Below are positions 8,205 through 36,994 of a DNA stretch of 56,094 nucleotides, one piece after another. Origin of the DNA: a virus. Made by a program: the position numbers and the translations under genes. Where the stretch lies: positions 1 to 56,094 of the IMG/VR virus record IMGVR_UViG_3300033145_000771. One strand, 5' to 3'. The notes under the pieces are model-generated. The model was not told where the DNA came from. It did no database searches and worked only from the letters and a program-made list of their open reading frames with translations. The stretch's first letter is position 1. Each line of letters begins with the position of its first letter.

Positions 8205-8384
8205 TTAACCGTAATTCTGCCACCAAGTTAACAATCTTTTCAAACGATAAGTATTACGACGTCCCCAAGAGCCTCTCATCTTTTCATTTAGCGACGAATA
8301 AAAGCCGGAGTCTATCTTCGGTTCTTTCGGCTCATCCTCGTATGTCATCTCAGATACACTGTTTGGATAACTTGTAGCACTCAT
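8205..8384 (-). CDS. Small 59-aa protein coupled to terL
   Basis: The ATG at 8384 overlaps the terL stop in an ATGA junction. The product begins MSATSYPNSVSEMTYED and ends with a basic, aromatic tail (RRNTYRLKRLLTWWQNYG). It fills what would otherwise be a 195-base gap. Function unknown. Confidence 0.6.
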   Translation of the reverse strand: MSATSYPNSVSEMTYEDEPKEPKIDSGFYSSLNEKMRGSWGRRNTYRLKRLLTWWQNYG

Positions 8385-11300
8385 GCTGACACCGAACCTT
8401 TCTTTCTTGGTCTGTCTACGGTGTACAATATGTACCGTACAACGTCAAGCGTATGGTCGTTTTTCGCCAAAGGTAAATCTTTAGGATCCCTAGAGGCGGA
8501 GCCCTTTGGGTATTGGTACATGGCCATCTCCCGAGCTGTATTCCGGCAGGACTTAAAGATATATAAGCTCGGCTTCCCATTCGCCTTAACTTTGAGTTTA
8601 CTTTGTACAAGTTCAATACCACGAGCCACATCGTTTCGAGCTATCAGAGTAGGTATGCCGGCTTTGCGAAGCTCGCCTCTGTCCTCAGCATTTTCAGGGT
8701 CTGCGTAAGTTCCTTGATATTTCTCATTAGAACTTCTCGCTTTGATATTAGCAATATGCTCCTGAATGCCGGTTTTGGCTCTGTAATATTCGCGATATAC
8801 ATACCAGTTCTCATCCTTATCCTTAGCAAGCCACAGACAATTGCCACAAACCATCGGCCTGCCTCTACGCCTAACGACTAAAGTATTATACTTAGGAACT
8901 TCAACACAAAATATCATATCGTTATAATCTATTGACATGATTTTCATTTTTTGTACCGCAGCCAACTTAGCTTTGCAAATAGTAAGAATATAATAATCTC
9001 GCATTCCAGAATAACCTGCTGTCTTTGACGTTTTGATAGTCGTAGATTTTCCCAACAAAGCATAAACTTCCTGTAAATCATCTATTAGATTTTTACAAGT
9101 AGAAAAGTGCTGCATTCTATTTCTATCGCTTACTCCATCCCCCATCAAATGTCCTTTGACTAAGTTTTCTAATTCATCCCGACCCCAACTATAAATTTCT
9201 CTTGGAATATTCTTATTCTTATTCGGCGACCATTTTGTATTATTTAAGAACCAACTCCATAAATCTTTGCTTTGAATCCGATAATCTTTTACTCTATTAT
9301 CTGAGATTGCAGTTGTATATTTCCAACCGAGATTATTTAGTATTCTTTCCACTTCCTTACATTTTGTTTTTTGAGCAATTCTTACAAACCAACCGGCTTT
9401 ACCTTTAAGAAGCGATCCGTCAGCAAGCCATAATCCTACAAATTCAGCGAATGCGGTCTTATTTACAGGAGATAGAATGGTCTTAGAACGTTTTCCATGA
9501 GGTACTATAAAATCAACAGTCTTTTTGGCTGATATAGTGTTCCACCCTACAGGTATATCATAACAAGACAATTTTTCAGCAGGTACAAATTTCCATTTCT
9601 TTGGCTTTCTTCTATCTACAACCACCATCTTATGATTGGGCGTTACACAAAAGTTAGCACTTTCAACTCTAGGTGTACTAATTAACATTTTCCCTTTGTA
9701 TCGCTGTTTAATATATTTAACTGGTTTTTGATATTTTATTATTTTTGAAAGAGGATCTATAGTGGCAACTTTTTCTTTTTTATTAAGGTTAGCAAACAAT
9801 TTCCACCCTTCGTTAGTTAATATCTCTGTTTCTTTATCGTAGCAGACGAAAGGATTGGTAAAACCAAAATCAATACCTCGGTAGAGTGTCCAACCATCTG
9901 GAATCCTGAAAGGCTTTATAACATGTATCGAACGGTTGAAGTTTTTATATACAGCGCCATAATAGCTTGCGAACTTACCCTCAATACGAGTAGCCTGCAC
10001 TCCGTCCGGCCACTCAGCAATCATATTATCTATTCGTTGATCCTCTATAAACCCTCCTCGACTCTTCCTGTTATCGTTTAAGTTGAAATGAAATATTTCG
10101 TCTGTTGCGGGTAGTTCCTCTATTCTTTCTTCTAAAAAGGTTTGAGGCATAATAGGTGTCATGCTCCAACTGAGATAACCCTGATAAGTTATCAGTCGTG
10201 CTTGAGTTTCATGTAGTATGCCTTCGAAATCATGGAGACACTGTTCGTCGTAATGAGCAGATTTTATTGCTCTTCCCTGAAACAATGTTCGTCCCTGGTT
10301 GAATGCTTTGAACTCAATGGTATTGCCTGTATTTAAATATATTTTACGAGGCACTTTGTCCTGACCATAACGAATATCAATAATATGATGTTGAGGAATG
10401 AATTTCTGAAGATACTGTTCCCATAGAATATCTCGAACTTGTTCCCAGGTCTCAATTCCTACCCAATGAATTCCTTTAGCTTGCTTAAAAGGATGAATAT
10501 TGAGAGCTAACTGTGCGAGATCCATCATATTGGTATATGTTTTCCCGCTGTTGTGATGAATAACGCCACCTGACAAATAATTGTGATAAATAGGCACATT
10601 AAAATCCCAAATATCATCAAATCTCTTTACATCCAAACTAATTACCGCTATACTGTCATTTGATTTTAATTTAGGAGAATTACATGAAACGTAAGCATCC
10701 TGTTCGTGATCGTGGCCTACCACGGAAATGTTATGATTACCCAGTCGATTCAATCCGCCAATGGATTGCTGAGGGCAAAACTCAGGCATGGATTGGCAGT
10801 AAACTTGGAGTTGATGCAAAGTTAATTCATAAAGTTTGCAAAAAGCATGGCATAAAGTGCCAAAGAACCGGTCCGCGTTCCGGGCCTGAATGCCTATTTT
10901 GGAAAGGAGGTCGAATAATCGATAAAGACGGCTATGTCTCTGTCTATTGTCCGGGGCATCCTTATGCCAAAAAGCCAAACAAGAAGTATGTCCTTGAACA
11001 TCGCTTGATAATGGAACTTTCTCTTGGCCGTTACTTAAAGAGATACGAAATTGTCCATCACAAAAATGGGATAAGAAATGATAACCGTCTTGTAAATCTT
11101 GAGCTTTTTCATTCAAATGCAGAACATCTTCACAAGGAACTAAAGGGTCATTGCCCGAAATGGACGAAGGCTGGAAGAGAAAGGATGTTGGCTGGAGTTG
11201 TGAAATACTGGTCCAATTACAAAAAGAATCTAAAACCAAATGATTCGCCGAGCAAACAATAGATTGCCCATTTGACAGCTTGAGTTCATATAGCTGCGCC

Positions 11301-11572
11301 GGTGTTTTCTTAAATGGCTTATCTGCTTTTGCAATAACCTTCTTTTGTCCATCGAAAGCGTAAACATGAAATGGCTTATCTATGCTGGATACTTCTTTTT
11401 CTATTTTTTCTACAGGATCGTAAATCAATTGTTCTCCGCCTAAACACAAGTTGCCTCCGAACATCCATTGAATAGCGGCCTGCGATTTGAAATAAGCTCG
11501 TTGATCCTCGCTAAGAGGCTTATATAAAGCAATGTGTTTGCCTACTCGCTTTATTTGTTCCACACTAAGCAT
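8381..11572 (-). CDS. terL: Large terminase subunit with two inteins
   Basis: A 1063-aa precursor. Removing residues 43-341 and 577-911 leaves a 429-aa TerL. Intein 2 splits the Walker A motif, which is restored as GGN-L-SGKT. Walker B is SAHYDEQ (about 439-445). The nuclease domain has GIDFGFTNPF (split after V576 by the LAGLIDADG intein), YADPENAEDRGEL and the closing NDHTLDVVRYILY. TerL is the ATP-driven packaging motor and the nuclease that cuts the concatemer, docking on the portal. It starts eight bases inside terS. Both catalytic centres are interrupted, so activity should depend entirely on protein splicing. Confidence 0.93.
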   Translation of the reverse strand: MLSVEQIKRVGKHIALYKPLSEDQRAYFKSQAAIQWMFGGNLCLGGEQLIYDPVEKIEKEVSSIDKPFHVYAFDGQKKVIAKADKPFKKTPAQLYELKLSNGQSIVCSANHLVLDSFCNWTSISQLQPTSFLFQPSSISGNDPLVPCEDVLHLNEKAQDLQDGYHFLSHFCDGQFRISLSNGQEKVPLSSDVQGHTSCLAFWHKDAPDNRQRHSRLYRLFDLLSKIGIQARNADRFFGTLCHAFCKLYELTLHQLQVYCQSMPEFCPQQSIGGLNRLGNHNISVVGHDHEQDAYVSCNSPKLKSNDSIAVISLDVKRFDDIWDFNVPIYHNYLSGGVIHHNSGKTYTNMMDLAQLALNIHPFKQAKGIHWVGIETWEQVRDILWEQYLQKFIPQHHIIDIRYGQDKVPRKIYLNTGNTIEFKAFNQGRTLFQGRAIKSAHYDEQCLHDFEGILHETQARLITYQGYLSWSMTPIMPQTFLEERIEELPATDEIFHFNLNDNRKSRGGFIEDQRIDNMIAEWPDGVQATRIEGKFASYYGAVYKNFNRSIHVIKPFRIPDGWTLYRGIDFGFTNPFVCYDKETEILTNEGWKLFANLNKKEKVATIDPLSKIIKYQKPVKYIKQRYKGKMLISTPRVESANFCVTPNHKMVVVDRRKPKKWKFVPAEKLSCYDIPVGWNTISAKKTVDFIVPHGKRSKTILSPVNKTAFAEFVGLWLADGSLLKGKAGWFVRIAQKTKCKEVERILNNLGWKYTTAISDNRVKDYRIQSKDLWSWFLNNTKWSPNKNKNIPREIYSWGRDELENLVKGHLMGDGVSDRNRMQHFSTCKNLIDDLQEVYALLGKSTTIKTSKTAGYSGMRDYYILTICKAKLAAVQKMKIMSIDYNDMIFCVEVPKYNTLVVRRRGRPMVCGNCLWLAKDKDENWYVYREYYRAKTGIQEHIANIKARSSNEKYQGTYADPENAEDRGELRKAGIPTLIARNDVARGIELVQSKLKVKANGKPSLYIFKSCRNTAREMAMYQYPKGSASRDPKDLPLAKNDHTLDVVRYILYTVDRPRKKGSVSA
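8840..9844 (-). other. Intein 3, LAGLIDADG intein in the TerL nuclease domain
   Basis: Encodes residues 577-911 (335 aa). Block A is CYDKETEILTNEGWK; block B is FCVTPNHKMVVVDRR. The two dodecapeptide motifs are FVGLWLADGSL (711-721) and LVKGHLMGDGVSD (804-816), so this is a conventional intein with a sense-strand LAGLIDADG endonuclease. Blocks F and G are YNDMIFCVEVPKYNTLVV and PMVCGN, ending in Gly910-Asn911 (the usual penultimate His is missing), with Cys912 as +1. It interrupts the nuclease motif after GIDFGFTNPFV. Confidence 0.93.
10626..10654 (+). promoter_or_regulatory. Sigma70-like promoter for the antisense HNH gene in intein 2
   Basis: TTTACA at 10626-10631 and TATACT at 10649-10654, each five of six to consensus, with a 17-bp spacer. 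It is embedded in the sequence encoding the intein's C-terminal splicing region and reads into the HNH gene 30 bases downstream. Confidence 0.65.
10684..11262 (+). CDS. HNH homing endonuclease, antisense inside intein 2
   Basis: A 192-aa protein on the plus strand, opposite intein residues 104-297, the place where a sense-strand homing endonuclease would normally sit. An N-terminal helix-turn-helix is seen (TQAWIGSKLGVDAKLIHKVCKKHG, about 33-58). The nuclease segment is GYVSVYCPGHPYA, VLEHRLIMELSLGRYLKRYEIVHHKNGIRNDNRLVNLELF, with the HH, N and N residues of HNH_3-type enzymes. AGGAG at 10673-10677 precedes the ATG, and a good promoter lies just upstream. It is out of register with the intein codons by one base, unlike the antisense gene in intein 1. 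Confidence 0.9.
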   Translation: MKRKHPVRDRGLPRKCYDYPVDSIRQWIAEGKTQAWIGSKLGVDAKLIHKVCKKHGIKCQRTGPRSGPECLFWKGGRIIDKDGYVSVYCPGHPYAKKPNKKYVLEHRLIMELSLGRYLKRYEIVHHKNGIRNDNRLVNLELFHSNAEHLHKELKGHCPKWTKAGRERMLAGVVKYWSNYKKNLKPNDSPSKQ

Positions 11573-23237: not shown

Positions 23238-24084
23238 TTAAACAAATTTACTGTTCTTTACAAGCGCCAAGACCGCATCCCTGGTACAACCGGCCTGAAG
23301 CCACGCCCGTATATCCTTCTTTTGAGGCGGTTTGATAATCCTAACACTGCTCACGAACAGCTTGATGGAGCGAGCCAACTTTAACCCTCCGGAATACCCT
23401 GGAAAGAACTTCCTGCCGTCAGGCGTATATTTAGCTTCATCCTTGTCGGCAAACACCACGACCTGCCGGTTAGCATGCTCAATCATTTCTTTAATATACT
23501 TGTACCCTGTACCACAACTTGCCCTGCCGATAGCTGGAAATCCCAAATCCAATAGAGCTGCAGTGTCAGTCGGGCCTTCGGCGATGAATAGCAAGTCGTC
23601 GGACTCAGCCTTTATACTGCCTGGAATGAACAGGCCATTCTTCGAGCCTGGAACGCTAAACTTTTTACCTGTCAGCGTTCGCAGCCTAATCCCGATGATA
23701 TTCCCCTTACCGTCTTTCATCGGAAAGCAGTGGACTTTCTTCTGAGGATCCCAGCCAACAAGCAGGTCGTCAAGAGCCATCGCACTGAGCCCGAACATAG
23801 CAACTGCCTTTATTATATCCACATTATTGCGATAAGAGGCAACCAGTTTGCCCCAATTCGGCACAAGCGTCGGCTTAGGATTGCGCTTCGGAACGTATTT
23901 CCGTTTCTGTTTTGGCGGTCTGTCTATCAGATTATGAAGCCAGCCTGCACCTTTATCCCCAACTATACATACAGAGCCTTCCGATACCCGTGCGCAAATA
24001 GCAGCAGAGCCATCCTCGGCGTATAGGCACCAGTCAAAACCTTCCACAAATGACACAAGGATGATTTTTATTTACCCTAAGCAT
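23238..24084 (-). CDS. TOPRIM primase, zinc motif and body in two frames
   Basis: An ATG at 24084 with AAAGGAG seven bases upstream opens MLRVNKNHPCVICGRF and stops at UGA (24036-24034). A +1 shift at UUU UGA C gives DWCLYAEDGSAAICARV and the rest: a 281-aa protein with Cys10, Cys13, Cys19 and Cys30 of a primase zinc ribbon. The TOPRIM core follows (LLFIAEGPTDTAALLDLGFPAIG; VVVFADKDEA). The only alternative start for the long frame is a GTG at 24056 without a good ribosome site, which loses half of the zinc motif. The shift site resembles prfB; a single extra T or a sequencing error is the other explanation. Confidence 0.8.
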
Positions 24085-24136
24085 TTGATAGTCTCCTTTC
24101 CGCTGACACATAAAGCATTTTAGGTCGAATCATTGT

Positions 24137-29324: not shown

Positions 29325-29870
29325 TTAAGGCATTTGGCTTCCTGCCGACCTGCCTACAGGTTCTGCCGCCGTAAGTTTCATATAATCATTTGGGAAGTTT
29401 ATTAAAGCAAATTCACCGAAGAACTCTATTGCTGCTTTGTCGTAGGCTTTAGCAGCTTCTTCCTCAGTTGCCCGAGTACCGAGATGCGTCATTTTGCCCT
29501 GGAACTTAATTCTTGCCTCCCACCCTTTTCCTGTTCTGCCCGGCCTTATCCCCTTAAATCTGGACGCCTTGGTTTTCCATGGATGAGAGTTCATCGCATT
29601 TTCCCCCTTCGAACATGCCCTGATGTTGGATTTGCGGTTATTGAGTCCATTATGGTCCCGGTGGTCTGTTGATATGCCATCTTTGGGTTGCAAGCCGAGA
29701 ATCTCGCGGTGCATATAAAAATATAATGTCTTTTTCCCTACCCTCTTACTCCTGATAGCATAAAAAGTGTATGGGGTTTTTAGTACACGCCACTTGTACT
29801 GGTTTATTCGCTCATAATCCTCATCATCAACCACTGCAACTTTGCCTTGCGTTAGTGGAATTGTTTTCAT
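29325..29870 (-). CDS. HNH endonuclease with AP2 domain (first of two)
   Basis: A 181-aa protein. N-terminal MKTIPLTQGKVAVVDDEDYERINQYKW module (shared with 36548-36994), then HREILGL...STDHRDHNGLNNRKSNIRACS (HNH-type: H, N, N), then KASRFKGIRPGRTGKGWEARIKFQGKMTHLGTRATEEEAAKAYDKAAIEFFGEFALINFP, an AP2 DNA-binding domain. This is the common phage HNH-AP2 homing endonuclease. Its ATG overlaps the stop of the ParB-like gene. Confidence 0.92.
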   Translation of the reverse strand: MKTIPLTQGKVAVVDDEDYERINQYKWRVLKTPYTFYAIRSKRVGKKTLYFYMHREILGLQPKDGISTDHRDHNGLNNRKSNIRACSKGENAMNSHPWKTKASRFKGIRPGRTGKGWEARIKFQGKMTHLGTRATEEEAAKAYDKAAIEFFGEFALINFPNDYMKLTAAEPVGRSAGSQMP

Positions 29871-36547: not shown

Positions 36548-36994
36548 TCAAATTTTATGATATATCTTCTTCGCTTCCAAGTAAGCATTGTGAGCTTCTT
36601 CGGCAGTCTGAAAATCTCCCAGATGTATGGACTTGCCGTTTAATCTTATCTGTGCTTGATATTTCTTTTTTCTTTTATGCCAATGATAACCTCTGGGATT
36701 CGTTTTATTCCATTGATTCTGACTATGGGTTACGATTCGTAGATTCGACCTGCAATTATTAAGGGTTATGTGATTTTCGTGGTCTGCTTGACGCTTATCG
36801 CCTCTTTTGAGTCCAAGGATTTCACGTGCCATATAAATCTTATGCTCCTTGCCATTTATTAGACCGTTATATCGCCTCGCATAGTAGCTTTTCGTATTTT
36901 TCCATTCGGCAAACCATTTCCATTGATTCAGCCATTCGTAATCTTCGTCATCGACTATTGCATATTGGCCTTGTGTAAGTGGTATTTGTTTCAT
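36548..36994 (-). CDS. HNH endonuclease with AP2 domain (second)
   Basis: A 148-aa protein. MKQIPLTQGQYAIVDDEDYEWLNQWKW, MAREILGLKRGDKRQADHENHITLNNCRSNLRI (HNH) and a degenerate AP2 domain (GYHWHKRKKKYQAQIRLNGKSIHLGDFQTAEEAHNAYLEAKKIY). Paralogue of 29325-29870. First gene of the early region, directly after pseudoknot copy A. Confidence 0.92.
   Translation of the reverse strand: MKQIPLTQGQYAIVDDEDYEWLNQWKWFAEWKNTKSYYARRYNGLINGKEHKIYMAREILGLKRGDKRQADHENHITLNNCRSNLRIVTHSQNQWNKTNPRGYHWHKRKKKYQAQIRLNGKSIHLGDFQTAEEAHNAYLEAKKIYHKI

What the first reader, a model, noticed from the sequence alone, without database searches (positions are those of the whole stretch)
24030..24084. prfB-like +1 frameshift candidate in the primase zinc motif
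A well-placed ATG and SD open HPCVICGRF then UGA. The sequence is UGU GGA AGG UUU UGA C, with a GGAAGG directly before UUU UGA C, much like the release-factor-2 site (SD, CUU UGA C). A +1 shift restores all four Cys of a primase zinc ribbon. If used, primase level would depend on release factor activity.
Basis: partly seen in the sequence, partly recalled or inferred. Interest (0 to 1): 0.7.

Follow-up and report, generated by a model that had tools for sequence, protein, structure and literature searches.

The report
Frame-interrupted phage primase zinc motif
A phage primase gene is split by a release-factor-like +1 shift site inside its zinc-binding motif, and its two nearest readable relatives are interrupted at the same spot in other ways, which suggests that the ribosome has to skip there to make the enzyme.

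Summary
Observation confirmed, on the minus strand. ATG 24084 with a good Shine-Dalgarno (SD) opens MLRVNKNHPCVICGRF, then UGA. A +1 shift at UUU|U|GAC (24039-24033) joins 265 open codons and rebuilds C10, C13, C19 and C30, invariant in 20 aligned rows. The product is a primase (zinc ribbon plus Toprim). The two closest relatives with the site visible (about 50% identity) are broken in the same gap: L010 has UUU|C|GAU, a +1 site with CGA and no stop; L036 has an in-frame UAA and six extra bases. The three group together (94/99 with 25 rows, only 65/98 with 27). Twenty-five other viral contigs and four prophage-like copies next to the trio are in frame. Both gene halves look under purifying selection and other shared genes are unbroken, so a sequencing error is unlikely. 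The UUU slip codon fits two known +1 classes: RF2-type (UUU_UGA_C) and UUU_CGN. RF2 dependence could hold only for the window. Use by the ribosome is unproven; L036 and the in-frame neighbours are the main evidence against it.

The parts
24093..24098 (-). Shine-Dalgarno AAGGAG of the primase start
   Evidence: Sequence; anti-SD duplex -9.7 kcal/mol
24034..24084 (-). Zero-frame ORF: MLRVNKNHPCVICGRF then UGA; first Cys pair of the zinc ribbon
   Evidence: aligned to in-frame relatives
24033..24039 (-). Shift site UUU|U|GAC: slip codon UUU 24039-24037, zero-frame stop UGA 24036-24034 followed by C, +1 codon GAC 24035-24033
   Evidence: position fixed by the protein alignment; same place interrupted in L010 and L036
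24040..24045 (-). GGAAGG, the proposed internal SD; 0 nt from the slip codon; probably only codons of conserved Gly-Arg
23238..24035 (-). +1-frame ORF: second Cys pair (DWC...C.R) and Toprim primase domain

Best explanation
The window gene is a phage primase (zinc ribbon plus Toprim) made only when the ribosome shifts +1 at codon 16: peptidyl-tRNA(Phe) slips from UUU to the overlapping UUU while the A site holds the poor terminator UGA-C. The interruption is an inherited property of a small phage group and not an assembly error: the nearest relatives keep a slow or stop zero-frame codon in the same gap of the zinc motif (UGA in the window, CGA in L010, UAA in L036). Shown: the two frames, the conserved protein on both sides, the recurring place of interruption, purifying selection on both halves. 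Inferred: that the shift happens, its efficiency, that it limits primase level, and that L036 is also recoded (readthrough or a short hop).
For: L010 (50% identity over the whole protein) has a +1 interruption after the same Phe codon, with a different base (AAA UUU C GAU UGG); its +1 frame has no ATG/GTG/TTG upstream of the site and none before +1 codon 59. L036 has UAA in the same gap. The three group together: 94/99 with 25 rows, 65/98 with 27 rows. NG86: synonymous sites mostly saturated while pN is 0.18-0.33 over the upstream 16 codons and 0.27-0.39 downstream within the trio; window against L003: pS 0.86, pN 0.13 over 63 codons. Starts with good SD in all three (-9.7, -8.5, -12.1), internal starts weak. 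Other shared genes are unbroken in L060-L062, and the L010 helicase keeps two inteins in frame. UUU_U at RF2 sites: PMC5009743; UUU_CGN +1 class: PMC3498833, PMC5052127. prfB genes of Planctomycetota genomes holding relatives of this primase show the +1 site (CUU UGA).
Against: L036 needs a different event, and its site has no recognised readthrough or hop signal. No RNA structure (z between -1.43 and 0.66) and no spaced SD was found. CGA is not rare in the L010 contig (43 of 297 Arg codons). All 25 other viral contigs and the four nearest prophage-like copies are in frame, so the family does not need recoding. With those copies added, support for the trio falls to 65/98, 66% of bootstraps. 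No reads, proteomics or reporter data.
Confidence: 0.5

Rival explanations
1. Hotspot lesions: the zinc-motif DNA is cut, for example by a homing endonuclease, and small insertions left at the site block re-cutting. The gene is impaired, or rescued only by background slippage, and there is no evolved regulation.
For: HNH_3 and AP2-HNH ORFs are common in these phages; in L010 one ends inside the start of the primase gene. Three different interruptions at one place. Precedents: T4 gene 60, whose 50-nt insert may protect against a homing endonuclease (PMC5009743), and 5% natural suppression of a +1 mutation in E. coli rpoB (PMC7022156 abstract).
Against: The window and L036 have no such ORF directly beside the primase (nearest in the window 29325-29870). 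No target site is known. Both halves stay under purifying selection.
Confidence: 0.25
2. Internal initiation: the functional product is a shorter Toprim protein without the zinc ribbon, and the 5' ORF is a leader or remnant.
For: The window +1 frame has GTG codons 17 and 8 nt before the slip codon. T7 gene 4 makes two forms (recalled).
Against: Those GTGs lack an SD (-2.9 and -3.5 kcal/mol). L010 has no ATG/GTG/TTG in the +1 frame before codon 59, and the later in-frame starts tested in the three genomes are weak (-0.5 to -6.2). Cys and neighbouring residues of both halves are conserved.
Confidence: 0.12
3. Sequencing or assembly error in the four-T run of the window.
For: No reads are available; metagenome contig; a single-base homopolymer difference.
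Against: The two nearest relatives with the site visible, from two other metagenomes, are interrupted in the same gap. By hand arithmetic, two further lesions falling in the same 4 of about 280 codons has a chance near 2 in 10,000. Other shared genes are intact.
Confidence: 0.08

Closest known systems
RF2 (prfB) +1 programmed frameshift
   Same: Short 5' ORF, YUU slip codon, zero-frame UGA followed by C, rest of the protein in +1. Candidate host genomes have CUU UGA in prfB, followed by C in most.
   Different: Different gene; slip codon UUU, which the review calls much less efficient than CUU; SD abuts the slip codon; relatives lack the UGA.
UUU_CGN +1 shift class (influenza PA-X, plant amalgaviruses)
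   Same: L010 has UUU_CGA at the corresponding place, P-site UUU slipping to UUC.
   Different: Known in eukaryotic viruses; here phage DNA and a bacterial ribosome; untested.
T4 gene 60 translational bypass
   Same: L036 has a stop right after the last zero-frame codon, and a few extra bases in a phage replication gene.
   Different: Six bases against 50; no matched landing codon; no structure seen. The homing ORF is adjacent only in L010.
Phage DnaG/T7 gp4-type primase (zinc ribbon plus Toprim)
   Same: Foldseek top hits are DnaG cores (E 8.6e-11), T7 gp4 among the hits; profile hit to 1nui; phrog_239.
   Different: 281 aa, no helicase domain; the gene is frame-interrupted.

Membership tests
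RF2-type +1 frameshift site | YUU slip codon, then zero-frame stop, then C | tested here: met
   UUU UGA C at 24039-24033; UUU_U at RF2 sites in a minority of species (PMC5009743)
RF2-type +1 frameshift site | Internal SD about 3 nt before the slip codon (spacing recalled) | tested here: not met
   GGAAGG abuts UUU, 0 nt
RF2-type +1 frameshift site | Stop codon conserved among homologues that shift | tested here: not met
   L010 has CGA, L036 UAA
RF2-type +1 frameshift site | Shift responds to RF2 level | not testable with these tools
   Needs a reporter assay
UUU_CGN +1 class (for L010) | UUU followed by a zero-frame CGN codon inside the overlap of the two frames | tested here: met
   AAA UUU CGA U in L010
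T4 gene 60-type bypass (for L036) | Matched take-off and landing codons | tested here: not met
   After UGU UAA the codons are AGC GAG AGA GCT; none is UGY
DnaG/T7-type primase | Four-Cys zinc ribbon plus Toprim fold | tested here: met
   Invariant C10, C13, C19, C30; Foldseek and profile hits; model pLDDT 89.5
Pseudogene | Further lesions and relaxed selection | tested here: not met
   No second stop or frame break in the three genes; pN well below pS. A very recent loss cannot be excluded.

The most novel reading that the evidence does not exclude
A group of Planctomycetota phages keeps a recoding checkpoint inside the primase zinc motif. The place is conserved but the device changes (UGA +1, CGA +1, UAA with six extra bases), so primase is made only by the few ribosomes that slip. 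This would be the first regulated +1 recoding known to me in a phage primase, perhaps born from homing-endonuclease scars.
Probability: 0.3. Interest if true: 0.8.

Novelty: new variant of a known kind. Interest (0 to 1): 0.6.

Why it matters
In the literature seen here, programmed shifts in bacteria and phages are mostly those of prfB, dnaX, transposases and the phage tail assembly chaperone. A +1 shift that gates a primase would tie the start of phage DNA synthesis to translation state. It would also show UUU_CGN shifting in a bacterial system and give a natural series (stop, sense codon, stop with insertion) in which the origin of a recoding site can be studied. Gene callers would otherwise drop the zinc ribbon of such primases.

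Tried and rejected
RNA stimulators: folds of 120-140 nt around or after the site in all three genomes gave z between -1.43 and 0.66; rejected. Suppressor tRNA: none in the window, L060-L062 nor in the whole records of the window, L010 and L036. Rfam near the site: nothing. Pattern searches for the bare +1 motif gave L007, L008 and L034, which are not primases. The phage collection had no match to the window protein at 1e-5 and only distant matches to L010. Rare-codon argument for CGA in L010: not supported. The first 25-row tree used L036 in a wrong frame and is replaced. One search failed and was replaced; one search failed and was replaced. One of my notebook entries miscounts the in-frame loci; the correct count is 19 of 20.

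Bias to know: the junction-spanning peptide patterns favour uninterrupted relatives. The scan used only patterns away from the junction; it gave 2 interrupted of 8 contigs. In one search, seven related viral rows (L017, L021, L022, L024, L025, L031, L033) were dropped before the tree. In one search, 3 of 12 loci (L100-L102) did not show the motif to my pattern and were not counted.

Full report
What is there. The gene lies on the minus strand. An AAGGAG, 8 nt before ATG 24084, opens MLRVNKNHPCVICGRF and then UGA. The sequence at the site is UGU GGA AGG UUU UGA C UGG UGC. The +1 frame, starting at GAC 24035, is open to the stop at 23240-23238. Read across the site with a +1 step, the product has 281 residues.

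What the product is. The downstream part matches phage primase/helicase families (phrog_239, E 1.9e-15). A profile of 20 relatives hits T7 gp4 (1nui) and E. coli DnaG chains. AlphaFold2 gives pLDDT 89.5, with 92-94 over the zinc region, and Foldseek puts DnaG catalytic cores first. C10, C13, C19 and C30 are invariant in all 20 rows. Cys 10 and 13 are encoded before the site, 19 and 30 after it.

Relatives. Scans of viral contigs gave 28 distinct relative contigs. One (L003, 79% identical over 63 residues) begins after the site and says nothing about it. Of the other 27, 25 carry the motif in one frame and 2 are interrupted (L010, L036). Four of the in-frame contigs (L017-L020) look identical in the stretch shown. 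L010 is 50% identical to the window protein and has GGG AAA UUU C GAU UGG: the zero frame matches through CGKF and the +1 frame from DWC, and its zero frame runs on through CGA to a stop 17 codons later. L036 (about 50% identity) has UGU UAA AGC GAG AGA GCU GAU UGG: an in-frame stop and six bases more than the family spacing. So in the window and its two nearest readable relatives the zinc motif is broken between the first Cys pair and DWC.

Prokaryotic genomes. Searches in one class and one order of Planctomycetota (the phylum is that of L004, Rhodopirellula; lower ranks are unnamed) found prophage-like relatives. The four closest (L084, L096, L097, L098) are in frame. With 25 rows the interrupted trio forms one group (94/99, 92% of bootstraps). 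With the four added it still holds together but weakly (65/98, 66%). One origin with later change of form is the simplest reading, but separate origins are not excluded.

Is the gene alive? Within the trio, synonymous sites are mostly saturated, while the nonsynonymous proportion is 0.18-0.33 upstream of the site (16 codons) and 0.27-0.39 downstream. Window against L003: pS 0.86, pN 0.13 over 63 codons. No second lesion was seen. Genes shared with the three related contigs are unbroken, and the L010 helicase carries two inteins in frame, so those assemblies are not indel-ridden. This argues against sequencing error and against an old pseudogene. It does not exclude recent separate losses.

How it may work. 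In the window, UUU can re-pair with the overlapping UUU while UGA followed by C waits in the A site. The Atkins review (passages read, PMC5009743) says that UUU_U occurs at RF2 sites in a small minority of species, that CUU_U is by far the most efficient, and that C after UGA is nearly always present. In L010 the same Phe codon can slip from UUU to UUC with CGA in the A site. That is the UUU_CGN class shown for influenza PA-X (abstract and passages, PMC3498833) and proposed for plant amalgaviruses, with about 1-2% efficiency in reticulocyte lysate for the influenza site (passages, PMC5052127). Two different known +1 contexts on one slip codon is the strongest mechanistic hint. prfB genes of Planctomycetota genomes that hold relatives show the UGG CUU UGA site in 5 of the 6 examined, with C next in 4 of the 5 (in the sixth my printed stretch did not cover the site), so that lineage does RF2-type shifting. 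The hosts of the three phages are inferred, not shown.

What fails. The proposed SD abuts the slip codon and spells the conserved Gly-Arg/Lys of the motif. Its pairing (-4.9 kcal/mol) is like that before the host prfB sites (-4.3 in four of five, -7.9 in one), but nearer to the slip codon than the recalled 3-nt spacing. No fold stands out. No suppressor tRNA exists in the three records. L036 would need readthrough or a six-base hop; a matched landing codon is absent. Regulation by RF2 is therefore at most a property of the window phage.

Rivals. Homing-endonuclease scars are a serious alternative: HNH/AP2 ORFs abound, and in L010 one overlaps the primase start. Internal initiation is weak. Sequencing error would need coincident errors in several metagenomes.

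Prior reports. Searches of the held library listed no paper that I recognised from title and abstract as being on frameshifting in a phage primase. The word primase does not occur in the PRFect paper, in the GeneTack survey of prokaryotic frame transitions, or in the held part of the Atkins review. Only that library was searched.

Verdict. Recoding is the best explanation at about even odds; the RF2-control reading and the SD are not supported.

Noticed in passing
L010:2516-3001: HNH_3 homing-type ORF whose stop overlaps the start of the interrupted primase gene; related HNH/AP2 ORFs in the window at 29325-29870 and 36548-36994 and three places in L060.
   Followed up: partly
L060:2784-2851, 8794-8860 (minus): Two int-alpA RNA (RF02996) matches, each just upstream of an HNH-AP2-like ORF; a possible link between this RNA family and homing endonucleases.
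   Followed up: no
L060:5399-5463: Type II hammerhead ribozyme match (42 bits, gathering 37) in the L036 phage contig.
   Followed up: no
window 8381-11572 (minus): 1063-aa terminase large subunit; residues about 575-912 match other phage families such as thymidylate synthase and ribonucleotide reductase profiles, which looks like an intein.
   Followed up: no
L062:1118-4702: Helicase of the L010 phage is interrupted by two apparent in-frame inteins; the first also holds a long ORF in another frame.
   Followed up: partly
L010:3211-4347: The +1 primase frame has no stop at its usual end and runs into a methyltransferase-like ORF, so a fusion or a second recoding or overlap is possible there.
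   Followed up: no
window 24085-24135 (minus): Upstream of the primase the zero frame reads FDLKCFMCQRKGDYQ, a Cys-pair peptide running into the primase start with its own in-frame ATG.
   Followed up: no
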